Assembly (NCBI GenBank): GCA_022495995.1
Contig: JAFEMH010002575.1
Coordinates: forward strand, 62,001-126,000
DNA length: 64,000 nt
Reading direction: 5' to 3'
Source of the DNA: Adenophora triphylla var. japonica
Lineage: Eukaryota > Streptophyta > Magnoliopsida > Asterales > Campanulaceae
The notes below the pieces were generated by a model. That model had not been told where the DNA came from, ran no database searches, and saw only the letters and a program-made list of their open reading frames with translations. Position 1 is the stretch's first letter, and each line of letters starts with the position of its first letter. Below are positions 8,941 to 61,879 of the stretch, one piece after another. The position numbers were made by a program, and so were the translations under genes.

Positions 8941-8964
8941 CAACACGAGGAAAGCGATAAATCG

Positions 8965-9260
8965 CAATCATCCCTTAGGGTGACTTCCCAAAATAGTCAA
9001 ACCATAGGGTGACTTCCCAAAACAATAAAACCTTAGGGCGACTTTCCAAAAATAGTCAAACCATAGGGCGACTTCCCAAAAATAGTCAAAACCTTAGGGT
9101 GACTTCCCAAAAACAGTCAGATCATAGGGCGACTTCCCCAAAACAGTCAAAACCTTAGGGTGACTTCCCAAAAAACAGTCAGATCATAGGGCGACTTCCC
9201 AAAAATAGTCGACCATAGGGTGACTTCCCAAAATAGTCAAATCTTAGGATGACTTTCCTA
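8965..9260 (+). repeat. Tandem array, about 31-bp unit (TTAGGGTGACTTCCCAAAA type)
   Basis: About nine copies of a 30-33 bp unit with alternating TTAGGGYGACTTCCC and CATAGGGYGACTTCCC starts, followed by AAAAATAGTCAAACC. It adjoins the 30-bp array and precedes two hairpin motifs. Confidence 0.9.
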
Positions 9261-16733: not shown

Positions 16734-18106
16734 ATGGCGAGAACCAAGTGTTGTGCTAGGGCCATCAGATTTGGCCAAAGTCTGAACACGGGGGGATACT
16801 ATAGGGTTGAAATGGGGGTATGGGCTAGGATCCCGCGCGAGGACCTTAATTTTATGCTTATGCAACATGACGCGGATACCGCCATTCTTGATGCCTTGGA
16901 GATTAGGGGTCCCCCCTTTTTGCATAAGTCCACTCCTACGCTATCATTCCATAACTCGCACGAGCTGTGCTGGCATATTTGCAGTTTTTATCATTCTCGC
17001 TTTGACTCTAATTTTTCTGACACCGACTATCCCGCAGCCCCCAATTTACGTAGTCGTCGCTTCTATAAACAGGTTATCTCCAGCTCCAGCGACCGGGGCG
17101 AGATGTTTTCTACTAACTCCACCTCCAGCCATGATATTTAAGACACTCTTACCGCGGAAGCATCATCCCAAGCCCAGGTTTCTTCTGAACAACCACATGT
17201 TACCGCCATTGCGACAACCAGTACTTCTTCTTCTAACCTTCAAACCCCTTACATATAAAATTTGGCATTAATCACAACGTTTATCGCATCGAGCCTTACA
17301 ATGATGACCTAAACCTTGCCGTCATGCGACAACGAACAGATGGGGTTGTCGCATATGTCTCACAATTGGAGGCCGGGCTTAGATTCCCCTTAGACCCATT
17401 TATTTCCGCCTTCCTTCACCAAGCTCAAGCCGCCCTTGTAGACCTTCATCCCAATGTTTTCCGAGTTTTGGTCAGTTATATCATCATATGCAGGGCCCTG
17501 AAACACGAGCCTTCTCTCCCTCTTTTTGTTCATTTTTTCGATGGTTATACCTCCGTCTCTCAGCGAGAAGGTATAATTGAGAAGCGTTTGTCTATAAAAT
17601 ATGGAAAAACCAAGATCCTTACTCCCCTTCCTGGCAAGGTGCACAACTGGCAATCCAAGCCGCTTTTAATTACTTCTCGCATTGGTTGGTCACATGATGG
17701 TGGCGACTTAAGAGAGATTAATCCAAAAATTGAAACCAAAAAGGCCTTAATCTCTGGGGATTCTCGCCTTAAGGAACGAATCCTCCAAGTCCTTGCCGAT
17801 GCGTCAGACACCGGCCTCGCCCTATTTTCGTGGCGAGAAATTCTTTCCAGTCCATCTCTTTTGCGGGAATCTGGCTTACCTGATTTCTCTTTCCCGATTG
17901 ATGAATCCCGCGTGACAATCATTCATACTCCTTATCCTTGTTGGGACCTCCATTCTAAAGACTGCTTTGGCTCAGAATGTGAACCTTGTCAGCGAGAAGA
18001 TTACTGCTGTAAAGCTATGTATGAAGTATACAATATGAATTCTCGCCTTGAACTCTATTTTGTTTATTCCCAGCATTTAAATTATATCTTCCCGCCATTT
18101 AAATAA
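16734..18106 (+). pseudogene. Antisense ORF of element C, part 1 (putative gypsy-type transposon domain)
   Basis: The start at 16734 (MARTKCC) gives a frame interrupted by a TAA at 17139 and a one-base frame change near 17260, then open from about 17265. The conserved part, 17340-17600, reads VSQLEAGLRFPLDPF, then a helix with HPNVFRVLVSYIIICRAL and PLFVHFFDGY. This matches the Pfam family called putative gypsy-type transposon (PF04195), typical of extra ORFs in Tat elements. Its function is unknown. A likely intron begins shortly before 18106 and ends at the TTTTCACAG acceptor near 18129; the exact donor is unclear. It lies on the strand opposite to pol and converges on it. Confidence 0.75.
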
Positions 18107-21069: not shown

Positions 21070-22409
21070 TCATTGATAGAACTGTTTGAGGTGGTCAACA
21101 CTCCATGCATTTTTCAATTCTTCTCCATCTTGCTTTCTTAAACGATATGTCCCTTCCCGTACGACATTCGAGATTTGGAAAGGTCACTCCCATTTCTCGT
21201 TCAGCTTAGTATATCCCAGCTTGGCTCCTGTTGCCTCCATACTTCTCAAAACCCAATCTCCGACATTAAAAGACCTCTTGTTAACTCGCCTATCGTGTTG
21301 CGCTTTCATCTTTCGTTTGTAGTTGATCATCCTCATTCTCGCATACATCCTTCTTTCATCAATCAAATCCAGATCATTACATCGGCTTTGCCCATTTCTG
21401 CTTCATCATAGTTAGCCACCCTGTAATTCGGCAAGGCCATCTCTGCAGGTGCCATAGCTTCCGACCCATAAGTAAGGGCAAAGCCGGTTTCTCCAGTTGA
21501 GCCCTTGATTGTTGTTCTTACGTACCACAAAGCTATTGGTAACTCATCCAACCAAGCTCCACCTCTTCCTTCCAGGCTCTTGCGCAAGGCGGCAAGGATT
21601 TGCTTGTTTGCCGCCTCGGCCTGCCCATTACACTGCGGCCTATAAACTGCCGACATCCAGTGCTTAACATTCACCCTCTCACATTCCGCTGAAAACTTCT
21701 TCCCAAATTGCGTACCATGATCTGAAATAATCGCCCTGGGAACCCCATATCTACACCAGATATTCTCATGTACAAACTTGATCACCTGGTCCTCACTGAT
21801 TGTCGCTAAAGCCTTCACCTCAGTCCACTTTGTAAAGTAATCTACGGCGATAACCACGTGCTGACAGCCGCCTTTGGCTTTTGGAAAAGGGCCTATCAAG
21901 TCAATCCCCCACATGTCAAAAGGCCAAGTCGGCACGATGGGAGTTTGCTCAGTTGCGGGCTGGCGGGGAATGTTGCCAAATCTCTGGCACTTTTCGCATT
22001 TCTTTACATATATCTCGGCATCCTTTCTCAAGCTCGGCCAATAGTATCCATGAAACAAAACTTTATCTGCCAGAGTTCTCGCCCCAGGATGACCGCCACA
22101 CACACCCTCATGAATCTCAAACAGTACCTTCTGCACCAAATTCGGTTCAACACATCTCAACAACGGTTTCGAGAAAGATTTTCGGTTTAGCACGCCATCT
22201 TGCACTGTAAAACGCGGGGAAGTTACTTTCACCAATCTCGCTCTTTCTTCGTCCTGCGGTAACTCTTCTTTTTCTAAAAAATCTTTCATCTCGCTCACCC
22301 AATCCTTCTCGATATCGACTATCTCCGAAATAATTGGTCTGTCAATTGCCGACATCTCCACAAATTCGATCAACGGCTCACTAACCGAACTTCGCTCCTC
22401 GGATCCCGC
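21070..22409 (-). pseudogene. Integrase of element C
   Basis: The zinc-binding module is complete: HEGVCGGH followed some 30 residues later by CEKC. In the catalytic core I see WGIDLIG, IISDHGTQF and GQAEAANK, giving the expected D, D, E triad. The chain continues into the C-terminal part (VGDWVLRS) after a frame change near 21363. A TGA at 21184 then interrupts a segment that ends around 21070 with a GTYRL and W-x-x-HL block typical of Tat integrases. It is separated from RNase H only by a TAG at 22412-22410 in the same frame. Catalytic residues are intact, but the polyprotein is broken. Confidence 0.85.
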
Positions 22410-24024
22410 CTATCTGCTCAACTCATCAGCCCGCAAATTCTCAGTTCGGTTGATTTGTACCAAATCCCAAAACTCGAATTCTTTCAATACATTTCTCGCC
22501 AAATTGCAATATTTCATCAAAACTGAGTTAACAACTCCATATTCCCCCTTTATTTGGTTAACAATCAAATGGGAGTCAGAATGGATCACGACCTTAGTTA
22601 GCCCCATGTCTCTTGCTAGCTCAACTCCGGCAATCAATGCCTCATACTCATCCTGATTATTGGAGACATTAAAGTTGAACCGTAACGCCTTTTCGAACTT
22701 AATCTTCTCATCCGGTGAGATGATGGTGATTCCCGCTCCACCTTTATCTTTGGATGACGATCCGTTAACGTGCAAAATCCAACAATTACTGGGCCTTTCC
22801 TTCTCTTCAACAACTTTGGGTGCAACCTTCTTTGCCGCTCTTTTTATAACTGCATCTTCCATCAGCTCTGCTTGGGATCTCGTAAAGGATGTTTCTACAA
22901 TGAAATCAGCCAATGCCTGCGCCTTGATAGCCCGGCGGGATTCATATCTCAGATCAAACTCAGTTAGCTCGATTGACCATTTCAGCAACCTTCCTGCAGC
23001 ATCTGGCTGTTGCAAAATTTTTCTCAATGGGGCATCACTCAATACAACAATGGTGTGCGCGACAAAGTAAGCCCTCAATTTTCGCGCGGCAACCACCAAA
23101 GCGTATGCTAGCTTTTCGGCATTAAAGTATCTTGTTTCAATCTCGCTCAATGCCTTCGACGCATAATATATCGGCCTCTGAGCTCCCCCATCCTCTCTTA
23201 CCAAAACCGCGGCTACAGGAGAGTCTGAAGCCGCCAAATAGATAAACAACTCCTCTCCTTCAACAGGACTACACAACAAAGGTGGTTTTCCCAAATACAC
23301 TTTCATCTGCTCGAAAGCGACATCACATTCGGCATCCCAAACAAAACTCTTCACTCCCTTCAAAACCTTGAAAAATGGCAAACATTTTTCTGCCAACCTC
23401 GAGATGAACCTCCCCAAAACTATGATCCTCCCGTTCAACCTCTGAATCTCGCCAATCGTCTTGGGAGGCGACATATCCAACAATGCCTGAATCTTTTTCG
23501 GGTTAGCCTCAATCCCGCGCCGATTTACCAAGAAACCCAAAAACTTTCCCGCCGTTACACCAAACGTGCATTTACTAGGGTTCAACTTCATCGAATTTCT
23601 TCTCAAGTTTTCAAATGTTTCCGCGAGATCCAAGACATGGTCATTCTCTCTGGTCTTTATTACCATATCATCGATATAAGCCTCCAAATTTCGCCCAATT
23701 TTCGACTTGAAAACCTCATTCACCATTCTTTGATATGTCGCCCCAGCATTCTTTAGCCCAAACGGCATCATCTTATAACAAAAATTTCCTTTCGGCATCC
23801 GGAAAGCTGTTTTCGCCTTGTCCTCCTCGGCCATTTTGATTTGATGGTAGCCGGAATACGCATCAATGAAACTGAAAACTCGGTGGCCGGCAATCAAATC
23901 AACCAATTTATCAATCTAAGGGAGCGGGTAGCAATCTTTAGGGCAGGCGGTATTCAGGTCTGTGAAGTCGATACACATCCTCCATTTCTTATTTGACTTC
24001 AAAACCATAACTGGGCATGCTAAC
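22410..24024 (-). pseudogene. Reverse transcriptase and dual RNase H of element C
   Basis: The frame is open from 23906 to 22410; a TAG at about 23917 breaks it just upstream. RT motifs are [27 protein letters not shown] and the catalytic AYIDDM. An RNase H of the usual gypsy type follows (FIYLAASDSPVAAVLV to QALADFIVE), then a second, archaeal-type RNase H (WILHVNGSSSKDKGGAG to NLRADELSR). The second RNase H is diagnostic of the Tat lineage; here the usual DGA/DGS acid position reads VNGSS, so its first catalytic residue may be lost. The N-terminal third of RT is missing because the element is cut at 24024. Confidence 0.88.
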
Positions 24025-24612
24025 TGTTATGGGTAAAATTCAGGATTGATACATCTTGAGTTTTTGTCAGCATGTCAACATCTTCACACTCGAGGGCAAG
24101 GTAAAAATTATTTATTTAATAATTATTTATGTCTGTTATATTTTATCACAGGGATAAAAAAGGCACGTGAGAAAAGCCATGACCAACAGACTCCTTTCAA
24201 CGGATCGAAGACTAGGTCAAGATGAGGATGACTTATCGAGATTGTAGGAGAGTTAGTTAGGATTTGATTTTTTCTATTTTCTTTTTATTATTTAAAGCTC
24301 ATGGCTGGAAAAAGGAACACACACACATATACGAACACATACACATACGCATTACACTCACACAGCTCAAGAACACGTTGTAATTCGCCATAGCTTTCTA
24401 TCTTGTAATTCATAGATAATACAATTGTTTGGGAAGGTAGGTGCTCATAATCACCTCCCAAGGTTTTGTGCCGGCGAGATAGTTATCTCAAGGGTTTTCC
24501 TCGTTACATGACCGAGCCATCTTGATTACATTATTGCACCAATTTTATTCCATTGCACCCTCCTTCGTTTCATTTCAAATTTCTTCTTTGTTGATTATTT
24601 TTTACCAAAACA
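24025..24612 (+). repeat. 5' LTR of element D
   Basis: TGTTATGGG start and AAAACA end, 588 bp. It contains a short (CA)n-like stretch near 24318-24345 and the words GTGCCGGCGA and CAAGGGTTTTCCTCGTTA near its end, which also occur in the LTR of F in diverged form. Confidence 0.92.
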
Positions 24613-24675: not shown

Positions 24676-25878
24676 ATGTCTACTCAACCTTTGACTTCCG
24701 CCGTCACCAAAACCCTTCCTAGCAGTATGAATCCTCAAACCAGTAGCCGGTCGACAATCGGAAGCCAAGAAACATTGCCTCCTCCTCCTCCTCCTGTGAA
24801 TTCTGGCAAGAAGCAGATGTCACCATCTCCTGATCTTGAGATCAAGAGCATGCTAATGCAGATGAAGAATCAGCTAGATCGTCAACAGAATAGCACCTCC
24901 GTGATAGCCGAAAGCTTGATCAAGGTGCAAAAGGAGCAGGAGTTACTTTCCAAAAGAATGGATAATGTTTCTCCTTACCGTCCTAGAGTCCTTGATTTCA
25001 ACATTGGGGACAGCCCTCAAACTTTCAATGAATTCCTACCAATGGCTTCATCTATAAGGATGTCAACATCTTCCCCTCCTGTTACTACTTCTGTGGCAAT
25101 GTCAACACCCTTAGATACCGGTGCCTACAGGGTGACCTTTCCAGAAGGGCCCATCTTCACTAATAGCACTGTTCTGACATCCTCTACAGATAATGTTAAT
25201 TCTTTCGTTAATTTCAATAATAATCCTGCTTTAGATAATACTGCTTGTACCACTAACCCTTTTGCAGGAACCTACGTTGCGAATCAGCTTCAGGAATTGA
25301 GAGACATGATCATGAATGTGCCTGGTGTCACTCCGCCTATCCAACAGGTCTCCTCGACATGTTACAATCAATCTTGCTTTACTCCAGCAATCGCACATGT
25401 CGACATCCCGAAAGGATTCAGCGTTCCCGCCATGAAGTTATATGATGGAAGTTCAGATCCTGAGGAGCATGTCGCCCACTACCAAGAAAAGATGGAGATC
25501 ATTCTTATCCCGCTCCCGTTTAGTGAAGCTTGCTTGTGTCGAGGATTCGGTTCAACATTAGTAGGCCCGGCATTGAAGTGGCTGATCCGTCAACCTCCTG
25601 GTTCTATTGGCTCATTCGCTCAACTTGTCAACCTCTTCAACAATCAATTTTCTTGCAGCCGGCAATTTGAAAAGCTCACCAGCGACCTTTATCGTATCAC
25701 TCAGCAACCCACGAAAGCATTAAAAGACTTTGTTAATAGGTTTAACAAAGAAGTCTTGGAGATCCCCAACCTGGACATGGCAACAGCTGCAGAAGCTTTC
25801 AAAATGGGCTTGAAGAAGGATTCTCCTTACTATGAAGACCTGGTGATGAACCCGTGCAAGAAGATGGAAGATATCTGA
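24676..25878 (+). pseudogene. gag: Gag of element D, N-terminal and capsid part (ends at a nonsense codon)
   Basis: The start ATG lies 63 bases after the LTR and the N-terminus (MSTQPLTS) has its counterpart in F (MSTAMSST). The first 230 residues are Pro/Ser/Thr-rich with a coiled-coil segment near residues 55-95. The capsid core follows from about residue 240 (IPKGFSVPAMKLYDGSSDP) through WLIRQPPGSIGSFAQLVNLF to FNKEVLEIPNLDMATAAEAF. The frame stops at a TGA (25876-25878) where F has an arginine codon at the aligned position, which suggests a CGA to TGA transition. Reading continues in the same frame after it. Gag forms the cytoplasmic virus-like particle. Confidence 0.85.
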
Positions 25879-27012
25879 AATCGGGCCGTAAGATTTATCA
25901 GGCTGGAAGAGGGCAAGATGCAACAATCCAAGAATCCTGATAAAGCTTCAACATATGACCATCCTGACAGGAAGATAGAGTCATCTCATCAAAAACAGAA
26001 TAGATCTAGACCCTACCACAGAAATGAACATAACAAAGTCAATTATGTGGAAGATGACGGGGATGATGATATTGAATCTCCTAAAATATCTGATTATTGT
26101 TTTTCTGTGGATGTTTCAGGTATTCTCTATGCTATGAGCAATCTTGGAGATAAAGCAAGGTGGCCCCGAAAGACTGACAAGTCATCCGGCTGGAAGGACA
26201 AATCCAAATGGTGTGCCTATCATGAAGACTTTGGACACCTTACCGAAAATTGCATCGCCCTAAGGAAGGAGATTAGTTACCTATTGTCTAAAGGACATCT
26301 TAAAGAGCTCCTTGGGAACCGCAAGACCAAGATGGAGAACAAAGAGCCCGTTACAACCAGTCCACCATCTCCTCCACCGGTAACAAAGGTAATTAATGTT
26401 ATTAGTGGTGGTTCTGATATTTGTGGTACTTCTTATTCTGCAGCTAAGAGATTCGCTAAGAAAGCTAAGGATGAGAAACCCGAGAGATCCTCCAAGATGT
26501 CACAGCTCACGTCTCAAGATACCATCTCCTTCGAAGAAAGTGACCGGGACAATGTTATGGATCCACATCATGACGCCTTGGTTGTTGCACTTCAGATAGC
26601 CAACTGCAAGGTCAGACGTATCCTAATAGATGGGGGCAGCTCTGTGAATCTCATCATGTTGGATGCTCTGAAGGAAATGAAAATCCCTGAAGACAGCATC
26701 ATAAAGTGGACCTCGGTGCTCGTGGGTTTCAGTGGAGAAACCAAAAGTACAGTGGGTGAGATCACACTTCCAGTCTACGTCGAAGGTATCAATTCCATGG
26801 AGAAATTCTATGTAATCGATAGTACAACTTGTTATAATGTGATCTTGGGAAGACCATGGATCCATGGAATGAAGGCTGTACCATCCACCTATCACCAATG
26901 TGTCAAGATGCCGACACCTTGGGGAGTTTTCAAGGTTTACAGCGATCAACAGTCAGCTAAAGAATGTTACATGACTTCCATGAAGGCGTCAACGACCCCT
27001 AAGATAGCATAG
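25879..27012 (+). CDS. Nucleocapsid and protease part of gag-pro, element D
   Basis: It is in frame with the upstream gag and ends at a UAG (27010-27012). The nucleocapsid knuckle is CAYHEDFGHLTENC (near 26215-26256), followed by IALRKEISYLL. The linker contains a conserved block ISGGSDICGTSYSAAKR, shared with F and G. The aspartic protease shows ILIDGGSSVNLI (active-site D-G-G/S form), GFSGETKSTVGEI and YNVILGRPWIH. The first internal methionine is at 25918, but translation presumably begins in the upstream gag. Protease acts in particle maturation. The terminal UAG seems to be a readthrough site (separate entry). Confidence 0.88.
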   Translation, partial: NRAVRFIRLEEGKMQQSKNPDKASTYDHPDRKIESSHQKQNRSRPYHRNEHNKVNYVEDDGDDDIESPKISDYCFSVDVSGILYAMSNLGDKARWPRKTDKSSGWKDKSKWCAYHEDFGHLTENCIALRKEISYLLSKGHLKELLGNRKTKMENKEPVTTSPPSPPPVTKVINVISGGSDICGTSYSAAKRFAKKAKDEKPERSSKMSQLTSQDTISFEESDRDNVMDPHHDALVVALQIANCKVRRILIDGGSSVNLIMLDALKEMKIPEDSIIKWTSVLVGFSGETKSTVGEITLPVYVEGINSMEKFYVIDSTTCYNVILGRPWIHGMKAVPSTYHQCVKMPTPWGVFKVYSDQQSAKECYMTSMKASTTPKIA

Positions 27013-27018
27013 CAATTA
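27010..27018 (+). promoter_or_regulatory. Candidate leaky stop (UAG CAA UUA) between protease and RT, element D
   Basis: The gag-pro frame ends TAG, followed in the same frame by CAA TTA and the pol frame. UAG-CAR-YYA is the established tobamovirus readthrough context. The same nine bases stand at the same junction in F and G. Confidence 0.75.
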
Positions 27019-30000
27019 CAGAGAAAGGCCCGTGAGGTTCTGGAGGCGAAGGAACATAATTTGAAAGAGATACTCTTAGATCCCTCAAGCCCAGATCTCA
27101 AAGTGCTAGTTAGCCAAGATGTTCCAGCAGAAATAGAAGAAGACCTTATCAAACTATTACAGAGCAGAATTAAAAGCTTCACATGGAAACATGAAGATAT
27201 GACAGGCATCAGTAAGGATGTAATCACCCATAAACTCAACATCGATCCATCTTTCAGACCGATCCACCAAAAGAGAAGAAAGTTCGCACAAGAAAGGAAT
27301 ATTATCATTCAAGAAGAAGTGGATAGACTACTCAAAGCTAAAATGATCAGAGAGATCGAATACCCAAGATGGCTAGCAAATGTGGTGGTAGTAGAAAAGA
27401 GGAACGGAAAATGGAGAGTTTGTGTTGACTTCACAGACTTAAATAAGGCTTGTCCGAAAGATCCTTTCCCCTTGCCACACATTGATACTCTGGTAGATGC
27501 TACTTGCGGGCATGAAGTTTTGACTTTCCTAGATGCGTCTTCAGGATTTCAGCAAATCCAGATGGAGCCATCCGACCAAGAGGATACCGCCTTCATCATC
27601 CCAACAGGTATTTATTGTTACATTGCAATGCCTTTTGGACTAAGAAATGCAGGTGCTACCTACCAGAGGCTAGTCAACATGATGTTCAAAGAGCAGATTG
27701 GGGACACTATGGAAGTATACATCGACGATATGGTGATAAAATCAAAGAAAGCTGAAGATCATGTTCGAGATCTTGCTCAAGCATTCGACATCCTAGACAA
27801 GTTCAACATGAAGCTCAACCCAGCAAAGTACAATTTTGGCACGAAGTCCGGGAAATTCTTGGGCTACATGGTGACACAAAGAGGGATAGAAGCAAGCCCG
27901 GAGCAGATCAGAGCAATCATCAACTTAACGTCACCCAAATCAATAAAAGATGTTCAAAGATTGACAGGGAAGGTGGCAGCATTGAATCGATTCATCTCAA
28001 AATCCTCAGATAGATGCAAACCGTTCTATGACATCTTAAAGAAGAATTCTAGGTTCGAGTGGACTGATAAGCATGAACAAGCCTTTCAAGATTTGAAGCT
28101 GTACCTATCAACACCTCCCCTTCTTTCAAAGCCTCAAGAAGGTGAGCCATTGTGTGTCTACTTAGCTGTCTCTGAAACCGCAGTTAGTGCCGTCCTGGTC
28201 CGTGATCAAGATGGCATCCAGCAGCCAATATACTACGTAAGTAAAACATTGCTCGATGCGGAAACCAGGTATTCACACCTTGAAAAATTAATCTTAGCTT
28301 TAATTTCTGCTTCAATTAAGTTAAGGCATTATTTTGAAACTCATATTATTGTCATTCGTACTAACTATCCAATAAAAAGCGTAATGAGAAAACCAGAAAT
28401 GTCAGGAAGGATGGCCAAGTGGTCCGTTCAGTTAAGCACTTATGACATCAAATATGAGCCTAGAACAACAATAAAATCACAAGCACTTGCAGATTTTGTG
28501 GCAGACTTTAGTCCAAGTATGCAACCAGAAGTAGAACTTGAAGTCCAACAACTCCAAGATGGGGACATCCTGAGGACGTGGACTCTTTACACAGATGGTG
28601 CTTCTAATATGAGGGGCACAGGGCTAGGCGTTGTCCTAAAGTCACCACAAGGGGACATCATACCCCAAGCCATTAGTTGTGATTTTAAAGCCACAAGTAA
28701 TGAGGCAGAGTACGAAGCCTTAATCGTGGGCCTATCCATGGCTCTAGACATGAACATCAAAGCAATACAGGTATATAGTGATTCATTATTACTTGTAAAT
28801 CATTTTAACGGTTCCTATGCAGCAAAAAATGCCAAGATGACAACTTATTTGGGCATAGTAAAAATTCTGGCAAGCAAATTTCAAATATTCTCTTTCGAAC
28901 AAATACCCCGAGAAGATAACTCTCAAGCAGATGCATTGGCTAATCTTGGATCAGCTTTCAAAAGCTTATCTCAGACCAATATCCCAATCATACATGTTGA
29001 CATCCCTGCTGTAGAAAGGTTAGACCTATTCTGTATAGATGATGAGATCCCTGATAGACAGATGGAGATATCTTGGACGACGCCAATAATTAAATATGTC
29101 CAAGATGGCACTATCCCTGATGAAGAAAAGAATGCCAGAGCATTCAGGGTAAGGATCTCAAGATTTATATTAATAGATAATGTGCTATTTAAGAAATCAT
29201 TTGCAGGACCATATTTGAGATGTCTCGAAGCCGACCAAGCTAAAGAAGTCCTAAGAGAACTTCATGAAGGATCATGTGGTAACCATTCTGGGGGCAGAAG
29301 CTTATATACGAAAGCTCTAAGGATGGGTTATTACTGGCCAACAATGCAACAAGATGCTACCATCTTTGCCAAGAAATGTGATTCCTGCCAAAGACACAGT
29401 GACATCTTGCATCAGCCTGCAGAATTGCTTCATCCAATCCTCTCTACTTGGCCGTTCATGAGATGGGGAATGGATATAATGGGTAAATTGCCTAAAGCTC
29501 CTGGGGGAAAAGTTTTCTTGCTTGCTATGACTGATTATTTCTCTAAATGGGTTGAGGCTGAATCCTATGTGCAAGTTCGTGACAAGGAAGTTATATCCTT
29601 CATTAAAAGAAATATATTTAGTAGGTTTGGAATCCCATCTGAAATAATATGTGACAACGGCTCTCAGTTCATCAGCAAGAAGACCCAAGATTTTCTCACT
29701 AGGTGGGGAGTTAAGATGGTGACATCTTCACCTGTCCATCCTCAAGCTAATGGCCAGGCAGAATCAAGCAACAAAATAATCATCAATAATTTAAAGAAAA
29801 GGCTAGATCAAAAGAAAGGAAGATGGGCAGAAGAGCTTCCCTTTGTCCTATGGGCAGATAGAACCACACCAAAGAACGCAACAGGTCAAACCCCCTATTC
29901 TTTAGTGTTTGGAGCGGAAGCGGTCATCCCAGCAGAAGTTGTCGTACCCACTGCCAGATTCAAGATGGTGACACCTGAACAAAATGATGCCAACCTAAGT

Positions 30001-30300
30001 CACGATCTAGACACCATTGACGAACTAAGGGACCTCGCTAAAATCAGGATAGCAGCATATCAGCAGAAGATTGCAAGATCCTACAACAAGAATGTGAGGT
30101 TGCGAAAATTCCAAGTTGGTGATCTAGTCCTGCGTAAGGTGTTTCAGAACACAAGAGAGCCCAATGCTGGAAAGATGGCTCCCAAATGGGAAGGGCCATA
30201 CCTAGTGGATGCTGAAGCAGGTAAAGGTTCTTATTGGCTATCGACTCTAGAAGGAGCAAGGATTCCCAGAAGCTGGAACGCAATCCACCTCAAAGCCTAG
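27013..30300 (+). CDS. pol: Pol polyprotein of element D: RT, two RNase H domains, integrase
   Basis: The frame is open for 1095 codons after the UAG, with no stop or shift. Numbered from 27013: RT spans about residues 80-290 with [11 protein letters not shown] and the catalytic YIDD at 236-239. A gypsy-type RNase H is at about 385-510. An archaeal-type RNase H follows, with YTDGASN (catalytic Asp about 528) to [11 protein letters not shown]. The integrase zinc site is H751, H758, C789, C792. The catalytic core has D821, D881 and E917, that is D-x59-D-x35-E. The C-terminal part has VGDLVLRKV and ends with HLKA. Two RNase H domains place it in the Tat lineage. All catalytic residues seen are intact, so the pol of this copy could be functional if expressed. 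Confidence 0.95.
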
Positions 30301-31293: not shown

Positions 31294-32926
31294 TCACGGG
31301 GTGGCTACTGCCACTGATGTTGCTCCTTCATCCAAGATCTCATTGCCTTTGGCTGCAGAGGATCCTTCTCCTACATCCTCTCCTTTAGCCTCCAAAGTCT
31401 TCAAGAGGGAATGTTGTTGCTCAACATTCCACTCTGTATGCTTCCCGGCGTAGAACTCTTCCATCATTTGAATTTTGATTGCAATCATGCTCTGAGCAGC
31501 AGAAGCCATCATACTCTTCTTCAAATCCTCAATCTCATGTAGCTGTGTGTCTTGAAGGGAAGACATCCCTTTCATCAAGCTTTCCACTTCCTTCTGCAAA
31601 TCTCCAATCTTCTTTGCCCCAGCTTCACTCTGTTTCTTGATTTGAATATTTTCCAGCACTAGCTTCCTATTTCTTTCCTCCAGACTACTCATTTTCGCCT
31701 TAGCAGTATCAATACCCTATAAAAGCCAAAAAATTCAAATAGTAATCTTAAGATACATTATTCATTTAGGAATATGTTAGAAACTCTGTTTTTTATAGAA
31801 ACCTACCACTGCAACCCTCGCCAAAGCTTCTTCTGCATCTCCTAAGCCCGTTTCATCCAAAACAATTACCTCCTTAGAACCGCTTTTCCTCTTCTTTACC
31901 CTAGCTCCAACAGAAGGTGCCTCCATCTTCCTTTTCGGCACCAGCATCTGTCTACTCGACTGGGTTTGGCCCACAAAGTCCTGAATGTCTTTAAGAGAAA
32001 AAGCAGCGGTTGATTTTGAAACTGTCAAAAGAAGTACACTATCAGAAGAATGCAGAATCAAGAGATATCAAGGAAAGTAACACAAGGATCAAATAAACTT
32101 ACCAGTAGACATTTCAGTGGAGGGTGGTATCTCTTTGTTTTCAGAGACGGTTATGTCTTCACCAGGTTGAAAGGATCTTTCCCCTTCTGAGAACTCTAAC
32201 AGCCTATTCACCTTCCCAATCGTTTCAGTAGATGGAGGGAAAAGCTTCACCCAATCAATGGCTGCAAAATCCAACAGAGAAATTACAACATGTAAGTGCG
32301 GGAAAGAAGAGAAAATTGGAATTTATAAGAGGGATACCTTCCCTATTCCATTCAGTCGCCAAGAAGTCTCCTTCCTCCAAAGAGTCCTTCTCAACAAAAA
32401 AGTACTTCGATTTCCAACCCCTATCACTTACAGTGACTTTCAAAAACAAAGGCTTCATACCAGACCTAGTCTTAAGAAGGTATCTCGTGGAACCAAACGT
32501 TTGAAGCTCATACACAAAGGCTAATTCCTTCAAACCTATATCTAAACCGAGTTCACGGTTCACCCTCAAGACACAAGAAAAGATTCTCCAAACCATGGGC
32601 ATCACTTGTACAAAAGCAAGGTTAGTCTTTCTAAAAAACTCATTTATCATTGCAGGGAAAGGGTAGGAAAAACCTAGAGTAAAGGGATACTCATAAAAAC
32701 AAACCCATTTTGGGGAAACGAAGTCAGACCTAAGAAGAACATCGAACGGCCTAAAGATGGTAGAATCTGGGAAGAAGTGTCGATCTTTGAGAGATTCGAT
32801 TAGTTCGTTATTGAAAACACAGATTTCTTCATCTGGTTTTGTCAACAAACCTTCACACGAAAAACCCCCGTCCTCGTGTAAACTCGGAGGATTTTTTGCG
32901 GCTTTTCCCTTTTTTGATTTCACCAT
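31294..32926 (-). CDS. Four-exon antisense gene of element D (PF04195-like, 461 codons)
   Basis: Exons on the minus strand: 32926-32338, 32261-32103, 32021-31807 and 31716-31294 (stop). Every intron (76, 81 and 90 bases) begins GT and ends AG, and the phases agree (1, 1, 0), giving 461 residues without a stop. Exon 1 resembles the putative gypsy-type transposon domain found in extra ORFs of Tat elements (VCFYEYPFTLGFSYPFPAMI, then a W-containing helix). Exon 3 has two basic clusters, KRK at about 279 and KKRK at about 292, a possible bipartite nuclear signal. Exon 4 is a coiled coil (SSLEERNRKLVLENIQIKKQ). The ATG context (AAACATGG) is favourable. It must be transcribed from its own promoter left of the 3' LTR or from antisense LTR activity. 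Molecular function is unknown. Confidence 0.85.
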
Positions 32927-33200
32927 GTTTGAAAAAAAGAAATAGGAAGAGAAAAGGAGGGAAGGATTTTACCTTCAAAGAAGGAATCACCGCCGTGAAG
33001 AAGAACGGATGAAAATGATTGGAAAAGGTAAAGGAGAAAGTGAAAGGAGATTTTGGTTTTGAGCCCTAAATCTAGGGAAGTGGTTACGGTAATTAATTAA
33101 GAGATTAAGCCCTCAACCGTCATGTCTCTTCTCCATTAATTAAACCGCAGGGCTTCTAGAAGGTTTAAGAAAAAACTGACCTTTTAAATTCATTTAAAAG
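32927..33200 (-). promoter_or_regulatory. Leader and probable promoter region of the antisense gene of D
   Basis: On the minus strand this stretch is CT-rich close to the start codon, as in plant 5' leaders, with AT-rich sequence further up. I see no clear TATA box. The location is inferred from the gene start. Confidence 0.35.
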
Positions 33201-33219: not shown

Positions 33220-33793
33220 TGTTATGGGTAAAATTCAGGATTGATGCATCTTGAGTTTTTGTCAGCATGTCAACATTTTCACACTCGAGGGAAAGGTAAA
33301 AATTATTTATTTAATAATTTTTATTTTGATTTATTTCTGTTATATTTTATCACAGGGATAAAAAAGGCACGTGAGAAAGCCATGACCAACAGACTCCCTT
33401 CAACGGATCAAAGACTAGGTCAAGATGAGGATGACTTGCCGAGATTGTAGGAGAGTTAGTTAGGATTTGATTTTTTCTGTTTTCTTTTTATTATAAAAAG
33501 CTCATGGCTGGAAAAACACACACATATACAAACACATACACATACGCATTACACTCACACAGCTCAAGAACACGTTGTAATCTGCCATATTCATAGATAA
33601 TACAATTGTTTGGAAAGGTAGGTGCTCATAATCACCTCCCGAGGTTTTGTGCCGGCGAGATAGTTATCTCAAGGGTTTTCCTCATTACATGACTGAGCCA
33701 TCTTGATTACATTATTGCACCAATTTTATTCCATTGCACCCTCCTTCGTTTCATTTCAAATTTCTTCTTTGTTGATTGTTTTTTACCAAAACA
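33220..33793 (+). repeat. 3' LTR of element D
   Basis: Homologous over its full length to 24025-24612, with scattered substitutions and several small indels (for example around 33318-33340 and 33585). Ends CCAAAACA. Confidence 0.92.
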
Positions 33794-34869
33794 ACCAGAA
33801 GGAGAATTTGGAAAGCAGAAGGATCAAAGTGAAAATTAGAATTTAAGAAATTGGTTTCATGTGCACAATCCACTGGAAAATAAGGAATAGGAAAGGAAGG
33901 CGCGTGGACCAAGGAAGGAAAAAGGCGTTAACCAGTCCAACCAAGCGAGTTGACCGGCTGAAAGAATTTCATTTTGATTTTTATTTCTTTTTCTTTATTT
34001 CTTTTTATTTTTTTATTAGTATAGGTTTTTAGTTGAAGGGATATAAATACTCCTTTTCAACTTCTGTTTTAGGGGTCATCTTTTTAGTATTTTTCTAAGA
34101 GAGTTTAGCTTTTGATTTCCATGGAAGCTTAATTCCATTGCTTTAGATTTGAATCTTGAACCGTTTATTGAATTCAATTGAGGTATTTATTTCTTTATTT
34201 ATTAATCCCTATTTATAGTTTTACTTGTTTTAAATGCTAGATCCTTTTCTAGGGTTTTGAGATTTGATCACCCTCTTTTCCCTTATAATTGATTTATTGC
34301 TAGTTTAATCTTAAGTCTGTGCCAGATTAGGATTTTTCACAAGTAGTATCTTTGAGATTTATGCATGTACCATGGTAAATTGAGAAGTGGGTAAAACTAG
34401 ATTTTATTCTATTTGCAAAAGAATAGTTAAATTCTTGATCTTAATCTCTTAAAGCTTTATCAATTAATTATCTAAACCTAGATTGTGCCAGTTAGGTTTG
34501 ATTATTGATTAGGGTTATAGGTGAGTGTGCCACTGCTTATAACCATTAATAAGAAAGAGATAGAGATTGAAATACATCTCGGATCAAGTGAATAGGAGGA
34601 AGGGAAAGAAATTATACCGATGATATTGGATTGATAAACGGTGACAGAAACAAATCTGAAGTGCTTTTCTTTTATAATTGTTTACAATCACATTTATTTT
34701 CTTGCTTTAGTTTAATTACAATCAAATCAAGCAAACCCCCAAACTGGTCTGTGACTATTACATAAACAAATAACCGTTCTTCAGTGGATCGACCCTGGAC
34801 TTGTCCTTGTTGCAGTTTTGTAGCCGAGTCTTGGTAATTTATTTGTAGGCGTGCGACTTTAGCCTATCA
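33794..34869 (+). repeat. Truncated LTR L of an unidentified retroelement
   Basis: The sequence has TATAAATAC at 34042, a leader-like stretch, and near the end AGTGGATCGACCCTGGACTT and GTGCGACTTTAGCCTATCA. That last part is the usual form of plant LTR ends that precede a TGGCGCCGTTGCC-type PBS. The right end at 34869 cuts element F in the middle of RT. The left end is lost at the border with D, and no internal region is present, so it is a truncated solo LTR. The family is not identified; Athila-like or a related non-autonomous group is possible. Confidence 0.5.
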
Positions 34870-35744
34870 ATGCCCATCTTAGTCACCATATAGCCAAGGA
34901 ATTTGCCAGCCTTCACTCCGAAGTGACACTTTGATGGGTTGAGCTTCCTGTTGAAAGCTTCTAGGATGTCAAACGCCTCTTTGAGATGTTCAACATGATC
35001 TTCTATGCATTTTAATTTTACTACCATGTCGTCGATATAGACTTCCATAGTTTTCCCAAGCTGATCTTTGAACATCTTGTTTACCAACCTCTGGTAAGTT
35101 GCACCTGCATTTTCCAGTCTGAAAGGCATAGCAATGTAACAATATATACCTTCTGGAGTGATAAAGGTAGTGTCTTCATGATCTGATGGTTCCATCTGGA
35201 TTTGTTGGTAACCTGAGGAGGCATCCATGAAAGTCAGGATGTCGTGACCAGCCGTCGAGTCTACCAAAGAGTCAATATGAGGCAAAGGGAATGGATCCTT
35301 CGGACAGGCTCTGTTGAGGTCTGTGAAATCCACACATACTCGCCATTTGCCATTCTTCTTTTCTACAACCACTACATTGGCCAACCATCTTGGGTAGTCA
35401 ACCTCCCTGATCATTTTGGATTTTAGCAATCGTGCAACCTCCTCCTTTATAATTTGGTTGCGCTCATGTGCGAACTTCCTTCTCTTCTGGTGAACGGGTT
35501 TGATGCTGGGGTCAACGTTCAACTTGTGTGTGATGATATCTTTGCTAATCCCGGTCATGTCTTCATGCTTCCAAGCTAAACAACTGGCTCTGGTTTTCAA
35601 GAACTCTATTATGCTATCTTTAATTTCGTGAGGGATATCGTCTCCCAATAACACCTTAACATCAGGATTGGAGGGATCAAGATGAACTTCTTTAATATCG
35701 TTCTCCGCCATTTCCAAGGCATCTCGTGCTTTTTTCTTTAATTG
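34870..35744 (-). pseudogene. RT part of pol, element F (truncated)
   Basis: It follows the UAG at 35747-35745 in frame and stays open to the break. Conserved motifs: [44 protein letters not shown], a variant [15 protein letters not shown], and VYIDDMV. After GYMVTKMGI the reading runs into LTR L. RNase H and integrase are therefore missing. Up to the break there is no stop, so the copy was probably coding-competent here before it was cut. Confidence 0.88.
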
Positions 35745-35747
35745 CTA
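35739..35747 (-). promoter_or_regulatory. Candidate leaky stop (UAG CAA UUA), element F
   Basis: On the minus strand GCA-TAG-CAA-TTA-AAG joins the gag-pro and RT frames, which are in phase. Identical nine bases to D and G although surrounding codons differ. Confidence 0.75.
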
Positions 35748-37117
35748 TGCCTGTCTGGGGACGCTGGTCGCCTTCATGGATATCTTGTAACATTCTTTTG
35801 TCGTCTGCTGGTCACCCTTCACCTTGACTACTCCCCAAAGAGTGGGCAACTTGATACACTGGTGGTAGGTTGAAGGAATTTCCTTCTTGTTATGAATCCA
35901 GGTCCTTCCTAAAATGATGTTGTAAGATGACTTGCATTCGATAACACAGAATTTCTCCATGGAGTTTGCTCCTTCCACATAAATGGGTAATTTGATTTCT
36001 CCGTAAGTATGCTTAATCTCTCCACTGAACCCAACTAGAACGGAAGAGCTTCTGGTAACATATTCAAGCGGGATGTCCATACTTGCTAAACTGTCAGTGG
36101 TTACTATGTTGACGGAGCTTCCATTATCAATCAAAATGCGCTTCACCAAACAATTGGCCACCTGCAGAGTAACAACAAGTGCATCATGATGTGGGTCCAA
36201 GATGTCACCCTTGTCGTCTTCGTCGAACGTGATTTCCTGGACATTCTCCTTCACTGCCGGCCTAGTTGGTAAATTCAACCTGTCTTCCTTGGATTCCGAA
36301 GCATGGCGCTTGGCAGCGGAGTAGGAAGTACGACATATGTCTGATCCTCCACTGATCATATTGACCACTTTGGTTGGAACTGGAGGATTTGGTCGGTTCT
36401 CTGCCTGTGGCTCCTGATTGTCACCCCGTCCACGTTGTTTGCCCAATAGTTCTTTGAGGAAACCCTTAGACAAGAGGTGGCTAATTTCATTCCTTAGGGC
36501 AATGCAATTCTCAGTGGTATGCCCAAAATCTTCGTGGTAGGCACACCATTTGGATTTGTCTTTCCAACCAGAGAGTTTTTCAGACTTTTTGGGCCATCTT
36601 GCCTTCTCACCCAGGTTGTCCAGGGCGTGTATGAGTCGTCTCCATCTTTTCACCCGAATGTTTGGGAGTAACGGTCCTTTTAGCTGCTTTCTCTTGCATC
36701 AACTTGTCTTCTTCCAGTCTAATGAATTTTATGGCTCTCGTCCTGACTTCTTCGAGTCTCCTGCAAGGTGTCATTACTAATTCCTCATAATAGGGGGAAT
36801 CTTTCTTGAGTCCCATCCTGAAGGCTTCTGTCGCGGTAGACATATCGATGTTGGGGATGTCGACAGCTTCTTTGTTAAACCTGCTCAGGTAGTCATTCAA
36901 GGATTCATCAGGCTGTTGGACTATCCTGATGCCTCAGTTTGGCCATTGTATCTATTAAGCTGGACAGGACATCCGATGGAATCACTTGCGTAGGTGCCCT
37001 AGAGGATCCTTCCTGACCTTGACCTATACTGGTAGAGGCACCAATATATTGGCCTGAGGTAGCTATCCCGGCGGTGGCTCCTACTGAGGTTACTGTCGAT
37101 GACATTGCGGTAGACAT
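35745..37117 (-). pseudogene. Gag-protease of element F with internal deletion
   Basis: The start ATG at 37117 matches that of D. Only about 70 residues of the N-terminal region remain before the reading jumps (frame change near 36905) to the end of the capsid (NDYLSRFNKEAVDIPNIDMS). Most of the capsid core is therefore deleted. A second frame change near 36640 precedes the nucleocapsid (CAYHEDFGHTTENC) and the protease (ILIDNGSSVNIV, GFSGEIKHTYGEIKLPIYVE, YNIILGRTWIH). The reading ends at the UAG at 35747-35745. Confidence 0.85.
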
Positions 37118-49285: not shown

Positions 49286-50735
49286 AGTAAACGGAACGGG
49301 GTCGGAACGCCGTTTTAACCCGTGATTACTTCTCTTACGGAAAGAGAAGAGGATCGAGGGGCTAAAACGTATCGGACCCCGTTAGACGGAGGCGTCTACA
49401 TTTTGATAACGACGTTCGAAACAGTTATAGCGACTGGCGCGTAAACCGAGACGGAACGGGAGATTTAGAGAGAGGGAGTTATACCTATGGCTAGGGTCGA
49501 CTCCTTTGGCTCGGGAGGTGTGTACGGGACACGAAAAGTGATTCGAAAGGTTGTTTCGAAGTTGTAGGGTGCGTATTTGATCGAAATACGAAGGTTTCAC
49601 GCGAATCGAGACAGAACGGGAGCTCGGGAGGGGTGAAAACCAGTTTGGACCGTGGGGTATGTGAATTTTTGGTGTAAAAATCCTCTCTATTTGGCTTTGA
49701 CAGCCATTTCTATTTATAGGTGAAATTTGCAGTAGGAGTCCGGACGGACTTGGCCTGAATCCAGGGGGTTTTGTGGTATTTTGAGAATTTGAAGGACTTG
49801 CTGGCAATTTCAGAAAATGTGCACAGTGAGTCCGGCCGGACTAGGCTTGCAAACCAGGGGTATTTTGGTCTTTTGGCCTTGATTTGTGATTGACGAGTGA
49901 CTAGAGGGAGGTGGCATGCAGGACACGTGTCCTGTGACTCACCAGAAGTGTGGGAGTTCGTTCCCCGGTCCCGATTTTGTCCGTTTTTTAAATAACAGTC
50001 CGGAAAATGTCCGAAACGCCCCCTAAAAGTGCCGGAAAATGCGTTTTTCAGGGAAAGCCATACTTTTACGTGAGATGACACGTGCTAAGTATGGTTCGAC
50101 GTCGGGATGCACGGGGCAGTCCCGGGATGTCTCGTTGGCACAGCAACGGGGAGTTGAACGAGTTCCGGTTAACCTGGAGCGGGTCAGTTAACGGATTTCG
50201 ATTAACTTTCTGACGGATTTGGACGATCCGGATTTGGGTACTTACACCACGTTTATTGACGAACATCAAAATTAAATCCTAGAATCAAGGCGAAGCTCTG
50301 CCCGTATCACTTCTCGACCGAGAAGGCACCTTAGAACCACGTTCTAAACCAATCTCCCTAAAACAAGGTAAACTCCTACATTTTTATTCTTCTTCTCAAC
50401 CTCTCTATTGGCTTTTTGAGTAGTGTAACCCTATCAAAAGGATTAGCCTAGAGTCCCTTCAATCCATGGAGGTGATCTCGAAGCATATAATCCGACATTC
50501 CTAACTAAGAAATTAATTAGGGTTTTCTCTTATTTAAATTAATTAGATTGATAATACTTAATTGGCAAGACCGATCTTGGGATTGGGTGGAATGGGTGCT
50601 CCTCGACCTTCCCATTCCATAACTTAACCCCCGAACCCTCAAATCTCTTTAAAATCAAAAAAAGTTTTTCTTATTGTTTTCCTAAATAAATGATTAGTGG
50701 CAACTCTGTTATTCAATAAAAAATTGAGCGCTACA

Positions 50736-52040
50736 AGTAGATGCAGTGATTAAAGCGAGAATAAGTTTTTCTAGATGGGAGTACCTGGTTTCCGCATCTA
50801 GAAGAGATTTACTTACATAGTAAATGGGACGTTGACTGCCTTGATCTTTCTTCACCAGGACAGCACTTACGGCGCTCTCAGATACAGCTAAATATATATA
50901 GAGGGATTCCCTAGGTTCTGGCTTAGCGGGCAGGGGTGAAGATGTGAGATACTTTTTGAGGTTCAGGAAGGTTTCTTCGTGTTGATCGGTCCACTGGAAC
51001 AGCTTGTTCTTCCTCAAGACATCATAAAACAACTAGCATTTTTCGGAGGATTTAGAGATAAACCAATTTAAGGCCGCTACATGCCCTGTCAATCTTTGTA
51101 CATCTTTTATGTTTTTAGGGGACTGCAGGTTGAGGATAGCTTTGATCTGTTCTGGACTGGCCTCGATTCCTCTCTTAGTCACCATGTACCCCAAAAACTT
51201 CCCAGCTCTAACCCCAAAATTGCACTTGGAAGGGTTCATCTTCATATTGAAGGCTTCTAAGATGTCAAAGGCCTCTGCCAAGTGTTGCACGTGATCTTCC
51301 ATATTCTTGGACTTTACCACCATGTCATCTATGTATACTTCCATTGTTTTGTCGAGATGGTCCTTGAACATCTTGTTTACCAGTCTTTGATAGGTTGCCC
51401 CAGTGTTTTTTAACCCAAATGGCATGGCAATATAATAATATATACCTTCAGGAGTTATGAAGGCGATATCTTCTTGATCAGAGGGCTCCATTTGGATTTG
51501 CTGATAACCTGAAGAAGCATCCATGAAGGTCAGCACGTCGTGGCCAGCTGTTTCGTCTACCAAGGAATCAATATGGGGTCACGGGAATGGATCCTTGGGA
51601 CACGCTCTGTTCAAGTCCGTGAAGTCTACGCATACACTTCATTTCCCATTTTTCTTCTCGACAACCACCACATTGGCGAGCCACCTAGGATATTGCACCT
51701 CTCTGATCATCTTCGATTTGAGCAGTCTCTCTACTTCCTCCTTAATGATTTGATTCCATTCTTGGGCAAATTTCCTCCTCTTCTGATGGACCGGCTTGAT
51801 GGTAGGGTCGATATTTAACTTGTGAGTTATGATGCTTTTATCTATCCCGGTCATATCTTCATGTTTCCAAGCGAAACACAACTTTCTACTCTTTAGAAAG
51901 TCGATCAACTCTTTCTCAATTTCAGGGGGTAAGTCAGCTCCAACTAGCACATGGGCATCAAGGTTAGAGGCGTCTACGGGCACTTTTCTTACGTCATACT
52001 CAGCAGCCTCCAAGATATCCTTGATGCCTTTCTGTAATTG
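50736..52040 (-). pseudogene. RT and first RNase H of element G
   Basis: It is read from the UAG at 52043-52041. RT begins with [12 protein letters not shown] and [14 protein letters not shown]. Two nonsense codons near 51637 and 51577 precede [27 protein letters not shown] and VYIDDMVVKSK. A TAG at about 51034 separates RT from RNase H, which starts FQWTDQHEETF and contains YIYLAVSESAVSAVLV and [20 protein letters not shown]. The reading is cut at LILALITAST by LTR H. All parts are in one frame, so only point nonsense changes disable it up to the break. Confidence 0.88.
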
Positions 52041-52043
52041 CTA
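52035..52043 (-). promoter_or_regulatory. Candidate leaky stop (UAG CAA UUA), element G
   Basis: On the minus strand CCA-GCA-TAG-CAA-TTA-CAG connects gag-pro and RT in phase. Same nine bases as in D and F, conserved although G has several other nonsense codons in different contexts. Confidence 0.75.
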
Positions 52044-52920
52044 TGCTGGATGGGAAGTAGAACATGCTTTCATATCTGTTTTATAACATTCCTTAGCAGC
52101 TTGTTGGTCTCCTTTTATCTTAATTACCCCCCCAAGGTGTTGGCATCTTGAGGCATTGGTGGTACGTGGATGGAATTGCTTTCATACTATGGATCCATGG
52201 TCTTCCCAAGATGAAATTATAGGCTGATGGACAATCAATCACACAAAACCTTTCCATGGAGTTCAATCCTTCCACATAGACTGGCAATTTGATTTCTCCA
52301 ATTGTTTGCTTGGTCTCTCCACTGAACCCTACTAGAATGGAGGAATTCTTCACAACTTTAGTTAAGGGAATTGACATTTCTTCTAATGTGCTCTTCATGA
52401 CCAAGTTTACTGAACTCCTGTTATCGACCAAGAGACGCTTGACCTTACAATTGGCAATTTGCAAGGTGATGACTAACCCATCATGATGAGGATCCAAGAT
52501 ATTTTCCTTATCATCTTGATAAAAAATGATCTGCTGGACCAGGGTAGCATCAGGACGTCGTGCCGGTAACTCCATCTTGTCTTCCTTGGAATCTTTGGCA
52601 TGATGTTTTGCTGCAGAGTACGTGGTGCCACAAATGTCTGACCCTCCTGTAATAAAGTTGATCACCTTAGTTGCAGGAGGAGGTGAAGATGGATTATCAG
52701 TGACGGCTTCTTTTGCCTCAGCCCGTCCTTTCCTTTTTCCGAGTAGATCTTTGAGGAGGCCTTTAGAGAGTAAGTGGCTGATTTCCTTCCTTAAGGCAAT
52801 GCAATTTTCCGTAGTATGGCCAAAGTCTTCATGGTAAGCGCACCATTTAGATTTGTCCTTCCAGGGTGCTGTTCTGTCAGCCGCCTTCAGCCACCTCGCC
52901 TTGCTTCCTAAGTTGTCCAT
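52041..52920 (-). pseudogene. Nucleocapsid and protease of element G
   Basis: It begins inside gag (DNLGSKARW) at the border with K. The knuckle is CAYHEDFGHTTENC. The ITGGSDICGTTYSAAKH block and protease (LLVDNRSSVNLV, GFSGETKQTIGEIKLPVYVE, YNFILGRPWIH) follow; the active-site loop reads DNRSS, so catalytic function is doubtful. A frame change at the run of seven G (52127-52133 region) follows PTPWG; after it the frame leads to the UAG. Confidence 0.85.
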
Positions 52921-53884
52921 TGTTGGGTTTCGAGGGTCCATGCGCAGCGGAATAATTCAAATTAACTCGAAAAACCGGAGCCCTAGGATCCGTTCTAGAT
53001 GATTAATTAAGAGGAATGATTTAGAATTGCTAACCTTATGTGCTTTTGTCGTTGATAAACGCGTTCCAACTCCAGATTGAAGAACTAGCGAATCTTCGAT
53101 GAACGATTCTTGAATCACGAACGAAAGATCTTGAATAGCGAAGATCCTCTATGTGTATCCACGCGTTGAACGAACCCTAGAACAATTCTAGGTGGATTGC
53201 TAGATCCTTGATTGAAACTCTTTTCAATCGATGAAGAATTATGGAATTGAATGGTGTTTTTATTCTCAGTTCACAATTGGAATCACTCTCTTTTGTGTTT
53301 CTCTAAACCCAAAACGTGAGTATGACTGCTAGGGCAACTAGGGGTTTGTATTTATACGTTATAAAACTTTTCCCCTCGCGAAAACCCTAATTTTGAGTCA
53401 ATTACATATCAGTCCAGCGCCGACGGGACGACCCGTCCCCCAGGGCACGAGTCGTCCCCTCATCACAATGTTCTGATACAGGCGTCCCCTTTAAGGGGAA
53501 TAGTTGGTTCTGGCCCAGGGCACGAGTTGTCCCTATGGGCACGACTCGTCCCCCTGGGCACGAGTCGTCCCTCAGGACTCTCTCACTGATTCTCTCGTCC
53601 CAGGCCAAGGGAATAGTTGGTTCTGGCCTGGGGACGAGTCATCCCCTGAGAACAAAAACTCCATATTCTTCATTTTTGACAATTCGTTCGATGCGTATGA
53701 CCCATAGGACTATATTATGTTAGCAATGAGTTCGATCACATCGATCCTCATAAGACATGAGCGGACTCTAGCAAGCCATCATGCCTACCCAAATAATATA
53801 ATATCAAGTTTGATTTCCTACATAGAACATATCACAATCCCTTTGTCACACGATGTTATATTGAACATGAGTCATGGTCCAAGT
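52921..53884 (-). repeat. Copia-like LTR K, truncated
   Basis: On the minus strand it ends CTCGAAACCCAACA at 52921. A minus-strand TATAAATA lies at 53356-53349, with a leader region (53340-52921) containing splice-like and CT-rich stretches. Upstream of the TATA box (53400-53650) there are six GACGAGTC or GGCACGAGTCGTCCC words in both directions. The LTR start lies beyond the insertion of I at 53885. The superfamily is inferred from the TGTTGG end and general layout only. Confidence 0.55.
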
Positions 53885-61860: not shown

Positions 61861-61879
61861 TAAGGATGGCGAGGCCTCT

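What the first reader, a model, noticed from the sequence alone, without database searches (positions are those of the whole stretch)
27010..27018. Conserved UAG-CAA-UUA at the protease/RT junction: likely stop-codon readthrough in Tat retrotransposons
Elements D (27010-27018, plus), F (35739-35747, minus) and G (52035-52043, minus) are diverged relatives. In each, gag-pro ends with TAG exactly where the in-phase pol frame begins, and the six bases after the stop are CAATTA in all three. UAG-CAR-YYA is the established tobamovirus-type leaky stop, and SIRE1 uses the same context for its env-like ORF. Three independent copies keeping stop plus context, while neighbouring codons differ, argues for selection rather than decay. 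In D the pol frame after it is intact over 1095 codons. A readthrough stop placed between protease and RT, rather than between gag and protease, would set the ratio of gag-pro to pol.
Basis: partly seen in the sequence, partly recalled or inferred. Interest (0 to 1): 0.88.

Follow-up and report, generated by a model that had tools for sequence, protein, structure and literature searches.

The report
Leaky stop inside plant retrotransposon polyprotein
In three diverged mobile elements of this plant genome the capsid-protease reading frame meets the same UAG stop, followed by the six bases CAAUUA that plant RNA viruses use to let some ribosomes pass, so the polymerase is likely made by occasional read-through of that stop.

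Summary
TAG-CAA-TTA lies at the protease/RT junction of elements D, F and G, as reported. Synonymous sites between the three are saturated while protein on both sides is conserved, and GCATAGCAATTA is the longest identical run in 849 aligned nt. On three elements alone this is moderate evidence (462 of 20,000 shuffles). The stop position is far more widespread: 100 of 120 listed relatives (504 found) end within -2..+1 residues of it, from eight eudicot families. Some relatives with a sense codon there (Silene Lys, Microthlaspi Tyr, Arctium Tyr) go on with Gln-Leu, as CAR-YYA can encode. Against universality, Fagus, Daucus and other Brassicaceae types run through without a stop, and a survey counts one gag-pol ORF in 37 of 63 Retand clusters (PMC11963269). 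The hexamer could not be read outside the window: the host-genome search answered 1 of 50 requests. Best reading: type I UAG readthrough between Gag-protease and RT in a clade of Tat-type, Retand-like elements; untested by experiment. Ten searches of an open-access library showed me no report of it.

The parts
27010..27018 (+). Element D: UAG stop of gag-pro plus CAAUUA, the proposed leaky stop
   Evidence: sequence
35739..35747 (-). Element F: the same nine bases
   Evidence: sequence
52035..52043 (-). Element G: the same nine bases
   Evidence: sequence
24676..25878 (+). D gag (PF03732), from the first ATG of the ORF to a TGA at 25876-25878 that F lacks
25879..27012 (+). D gag C-terminal part and protease, to the TAG
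27013..30300 (+). D pol: RT, RNase H-like and integrase domains, 1095 codons, in phase with gag-pro, no AUG start
35745..36698 (-). F gag-pro ORF to the TAG
34839..35744 (-). F pol remnant, in phase, broken at its far end
52120..52956 (-). G gag-pro ORF, cut off by a frameshift just before the junction
50718..52040 (-). G pol similarity (RT part), with private stops
24025..24612 (+). D 5' LTR (588 bp)
33220..33793 (+). D 3' LTR (574 bp); 600-column alignment with the 5' LTR 91.3% identical, 20 mismatches and 32 gap positions
32258..32968 (-). Antisense ORF (237 aa) between D pol and 3' LTR, no Pfam match

Best explanation
Three diverged Ty3/gypsy-type elements carry an in-frame UAG-CAA-UUA between protease and reverse transcriptase that likely works as a type I leaky stop codon, so that most ribosomes would release Gag-protease and a few would read on to make a Gag-protease-Pol fusion. 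Shown here: stop and hexamer in D, F and G; saturated synonymous sites with conserved protein on both sides; no early in-frame AUG in D and G; the same stop position in relatives from eight eudicot families; Gln-Leu straight after the stop position in some relatives that have a sense codon there. Inferred: that ribosomes read the UAG (probably as Tyr, as in the tobacco mosaic virus context), how often (some 5-20% by analogy), and that this sets the Gag-protease to Pol ratio. With the stop after protease, protease would be made at Gag level and only RT, RNase H and integrase at the reduced level. In the clade the stop state and the single-ORF state have changed into each other several times; which came first is not shown.
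For: Nine identical bases at the homologous place in three elements; longest identical run of an 849-nt alignment (12 nt, next 9), fourfold sites identical at 20 of 58, 15 of 60 and 20 of 62, the Leu after the stop the only one of 14 shared Leu with one codon in all three. pS 0.84-0.88 against pN 0.13-0.16 for 260 pol codons in the three pairs, and 0.79 against 0.20 for the last 86 gag-pro codons of D and F. 100 of 120 listed gag-pro relatives end within -2..+1 aa of D's stop. Silene P0280 ..KATTKLPS-K-QLQD beside Silene proteins ending ..KATTKLPS; Microthlaspi P0164 ..SHQL-Y-QLESK; Arctium P0215 ..QSI-Y-QLQNQ; two Tagetes gene models resume at QLKKD. The TMV context CAA UYA after UAG is read as Tyr in plants, with 6-10% readthrough in stable lines (PMC2754532, passages). 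Stops that look like decay are private to one copy (D gag TGA, two in G's RT).
Against: No readthrough was measured. Outside the window no junction nucleotide was seen, so neither UAG nor the hexamer is shown there. Fagus, Daucus and other Brassicaceae types are open across the junction without Gln-Leu, and P0204 (Gln-Ile), P0247 and P0253 inside stop-bearing clades do not show X-Gln-Leu. PMC11963269 counts one gag-pol ORF in 37 of 63 Retand clusters. The nucleotide test on three elements is only moderate (462 of 20,000). D, F and G are each damaged.
Confidence: 0.7

Rival explanations
1. The stop is bypassed by splicing, as in Ogre elements: a facultative intron ends at or near the TAG (used as 3' splice site) and Pol comes from the spliced RNA.
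For: Ogre has an intron between GAG-PROT and RT that is spliced from part of the transcripts (PMC6317226, passages). Gene models in Tagetes and many Centaurea proteins skip the junction (61 of 236 placed proteins have a shortened junction); two Tagetes models resume exactly at CAA-TTA's Gln-Leu.
Against: Those introns are annotation guesses. The 30 nt before the TAG are not pyrimidine-rich (C+T 0.40, 0.40, 0.57). The stretch that would be cut out codes for protease sequence kept between D and F (pN 0.20, pS 0.79 over the last 86 codons). There is no spacer between the ORFs, and a splice site would not need the six bases after it. Silene P0280 is collinear with one residue in place of the stop.
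Confidence: 0.15
2. The shared stop is neutral inheritance or decay: one ancestral copy with a stop was amplified, and stop and context are there by descent.
For: All three copies are broken somewhere, and an identical run of 12 or more nt arises somewhere in 5,190 of 20,000 shuffles.
Against: Fourfold sites are saturated, pol behind the stop stayed under purifying selection in every pair, and the stop position recurs in eight plant families. Stops that look like decay are private to one copy.
Confidence: 0.06
3. Pol is made separately, by reinitiation or an internal start after the stop, or is supplied by other, single-ORF copies.
For: F has an in-frame AUG at codon 12 of pol. Single-ORF relatives exist.
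Against: D and G have no in-frame AUG before codon 63, inside the region matched by the RT relatives. Conserved Pol in all three lineages argues against reliance on other copies alone.
Confidence: 0.07

Closest known systems
[quoted passage not shown]
   Same: UAG followed by CAA-UYA, in a plant host, giving a minor C-terminally extended polymerase product (PMC2754532, passages)
   Different: Here in a genome-resident LTR retrotransposon, between protease and RT; readthrough not measured
SIRE1 (soybean Ty1/copia-type element), stop codon suppression
   Same: Plant retroelement with an in-frame stop thought to be read through (PMC2194720 and PMC7385966, passages)
   Different: SIRE1 uses it for the envelope-like ORF after pol; here it separates Gag-protease from Pol in a Ty3/gypsy-type element
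Murine leukaemia virus gag UAG
   Same: UAG readthrough rations Pol (about 5%; PMC2194720, passages)
   Different: There the stop precedes protease and needs a 3' pseudoknot; here it follows protease, and no shared fold was found
Ogre (Tat clade), intron between GAG-PROT and RT
   Same: Control point at the same place in the polyprotein (PMC6317226, passages)
   Different: Ogre has a spacer of 274 bp on average and splicing; D, F and G have no spacer, only a stop codon
Retand elements with two gag-pol ORFs
   Same: PMC11963269 counts one ORF in 37 of 63 clusters and two in the rest; D resembles Retand in LTR length and a long region with an antisense ORF after pol
   Different: No junction sequence or mechanism is given in the text that I read; D shows no detectable TRP28 domain

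Membership tests
Type I leaky stop | UAG followed directly by CAR-YYA | tested here: met
   D, F and G; consensus from PMC2754532, passages
Type I leaky stop | Measurable readthrough into an in-phase frame | not testable with these tools
   The in-phase frame is present; no reporter or ribosome data
Retand (Tat clade) | RT phylogeny within Retand | not tested
   No reference set of lineage RTs was placed in a tree
Retand (Tat clade) | Additional RNase H (aRH) between RH and integrase | tested here: inconclusive
   RNase H-like matches (PF13456, PF00075) just before the integrase domains of D; the preceding stretch 27793-28512 was not scanned for a first RNase H
Retand (Tat clade) | LTR 315-1,194 bp and pol to 3' LTR 2,933-6,566 bp (ranges of PMC11963269) | tested here: inconclusive
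   D LTRs 588 and 574 bp fit; pol to 3' LTR is 2,919 bp, just below the range
Retand (Tat clade) | Antisense ORF with TRP28 (PF04195) between pol and 3' LTR | tested here: not met
   Antisense ORF 32258-32968 has no Pfam match, also at E up to 10; PMC11963269 says that two clusters lack it. D is therefore called Retand-like, not filed as Retand
Ogre (Tat clade) | Spacer or intron between GAG-PROT and RT ORFs | tested here: not met
   Pol follows the stop without a spacer in D, F and G

The most novel reading that the evidence does not exclude
A large eudicot clade of Tat-type retrotransposons rations its polymerase by tobamovirus-type UAG readthrough placed after, not before, protease: a further control device at the very position where Ogre uses an intron, switched on and off repeatedly in evolution, and the first Gag-to-Pol stop readthrough in a plant LTR retrotransposon.
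Probability: 0.6. Interest if true: 0.78.

Novelty: new variant of a known kind. Interest (0 to 1): 0.64.

Why it matters
How plant LTR retrotransposons make more Gag than Pol is open for many lineages; a 2025 review names frameshifting and alternative splicing (PMC12786077, passages). A readthrough site in a widespread clade can be tested with a short reporter. It would tie a plant-virus recoding signal to genome-resident elements, and would explain why gene annotation cuts these elements in two or draws introns across the junction.

Tried and rejected
Conserved stem-loop after the stop: over 120 nt the folding z-scores are 0.80 (D), 0.28 (F) and -3.44 (G), so no shared fold. Frameshifting: pol is in phase. 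Element H (58380-62923) as a fourth junction: decayed, about 1 kb between protease and RT matches. Element C (21085-24035, minus): its match begins inside RT, so the junction is missing. IMG/VR, bacterial and archaeal genomes and plasmids gave no relative. Pattern TAGCAATTAAC was my error: D, F and G do not read so; the eight loci that it gave show no junction. 200 kb of host genome held no D/F/G-type junction; only weaker RT and protease matches, RT at 46% identity or less.

Left open: PMC11963269 (section 11 part 1 and passages seen) counts one gag-pol ORF in 37 of 63 clusters; its '29%' and '83%' fit single ORFs in most eudicot clusters, against the many eudicot proteins here that end at the stop. 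Its supplements could not be read (no such look-ups allowed).

Full report
What is there. Elements D (plus), F and G (minus) each read GCA TAG CAA TTA where protease ends and pol begins in the same frame. D's pol is open for 1095 codons and matches RT, RNase H-like and integrase families. D lies between LTRs at 24025-24612 and 33220-33793. The copies carry private damage: a TGA in D's gag where F has AGG, a broken pol in F, a frameshift and two RT stops in G. Of the stops seen in the compared stretches, only the junction TAG is shared by all three.

Is it more than chance? In a gapless 849-nt alignment 58.7% of columns are identical in all three, and the longest identical run is GCATAGCAATTA (12 nt, next 9). 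Fourfold sites are identical at 20 of 58, 15 of 60 and 20 of 62, near what unrelated bases would give. Of 14 Leu shared by all three, only the one after the stop has one codon in all; of 6 Gln, two do. From the elements' own codon use, three TTA by chance have probability 0.009 and three YYA 0.038. Shuffling codon columns with the TAG held in place gives a run of 12 or more nt containing the stop in 462 of 20,000 cases and such a run anywhere in 5,190; two random codon columns are both fully identical in 3.3%. Suggestive, not overwhelming.

Relatives. A search with D's gag-protease ORF (candidates of 0.55 to 1.75 times its 377 aa) found 504 proteins; 120 were listed and all 120 measured. 100 end within -2..+1 residues of D's stop; 20 end or run elsewhere. 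By source names the 100 include Asteraceae, Amaranthaceae, Caryophyllaceae, Lamiaceae, Brassicaceae, Cannabaceae, Ulmaceae and Sapindaceae (families assigned by me from the genera), besides unnamed metagenome proteins. The length limit keeps full polyproteins out of this search, so 100 of 120 is no frequency of the stop. Of the 307 proteins listed in three searches, 236 could be placed at the junction: 101 end there, 45 run through at about the expected spacing, 61 have a junction shortened or off in length (mostly gene models that skip it), 29 are other. A protease tree of 151 rows (101 stop; 50 open, five of them Daucus proteins that I added from 'other') needs at least 8 changes of state, 5 of them forced by well-supported branches, against a shuffled mean of 41.

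The residues after the stop. Silene gag-protease proteins end ..KATTKLPS; the Silene polyprotein P0280, nested among them in the tree, reads ..KATTKLPS-K-QLQD. Microthlaspi P0164 reads ..GKSHQL-Y-QLESK where Brassica and Camelina proteins end ..KGKTKVL or ..KGKGQQL. Arctium P0215 reads ..QSI-Y-QLQNQ. Two Tagetes gene models resume exactly at QLKKD. Lys and Tyr codons are one base from UAG or UAA, not from UGA; Gln-Leu is what CAR-YYA can encode. Against this, P0204 (Gln-Ile), P0247, P0253, the Daucus proteins and the Fagus and other Brassicaceae types do not show it. These are annotated proteins, and outside the window I have no junction nucleotide.

Mechanism. Both sides of the stop are under protein-level selection in one frame (pS 0.79-0.88, pN 0.13-0.20), so Pol must be reached. 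There is no spacer, no shared fold, no pyrimidine tract and, in D and G, no in-frame AUG before codon 63; F has one at codon 12. The hexamer fits type I leaky stops, which in plants gave 6-10% readthrough in stable lines, more in transient assays, and Tyr at the stop (PMC2754532, passages). The likely result is Gag-protease in excess and a minor Gag-protease-Pol. Efficiency and decoding are by analogy.

What is known. PMC6317226 (passages): some plant groups have GAG or GAG-PROT in one ORF and the rest in a second, and Ogre has an intron between them. PMC11963269 (section 11 part 1, passages): one gag-pol ORF in 37 of 63 Retand clusters, two in the rest. PMC12786077 (passages): frameshifting and splicing. 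PMC7385966 (passages): fusion or frameshift. PMC5009743 (passages of the held part): plant retroelement recoding without this case. PMC3441728 (passages): a fungal copia element with a UGA and no CARYYA. None of the titles, abstract starts and passages that I saw from ten paper searches (lists capped at 20) reports readthrough at this junction. Subscription papers and preprints are not held, and Gao 2003 and Steinbauerova 2008 were not available.

Limits. The host genome (2.48 Gb) answered one of 50 requests, with a pattern of mine that is not the junction. D is called Retand-like because its antisense ORF shows no TRP28 domain.

Noticed in passing
24020-24024 and 33794-33798: The five bases flanking element D's LTRs differ (CTAAC and ACCAG): no target-site duplication, so D may be a recombinant rather than a simple insertion.
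   Followed up: partly
25876-25878: Element D's gag has a TGA where F has AGG: a private stop, useful as a contrast to the shared junction TAG.
   Followed up: yes
58380-62923: A fourth, decayed Ty3/gypsy-type element with about 1 kb between its protease and RT matches, somewhat like the spacer of Ogre elements.
   Followed up: partly
17237-18103: ORF with a Transposase_28 (PF04195) match, on the strand opposite to the pol remnants of element C (21085-24035), as in Retand-type elements.
   Followed up: partly
51921-52040: The 120 nt after G's stop fold far better than shuffles (z -3.44); D and F do not.
   Followed up: no
8292-9026: Tandem array of a 30-bp unit with long open frames on both strands.
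   Followed up: no
P0168: A public protein named as from Escherichia coli is 70% identical to element D's RT region and sits on a 1,860-bp contig: probably plant contamination.
   Followed up: no
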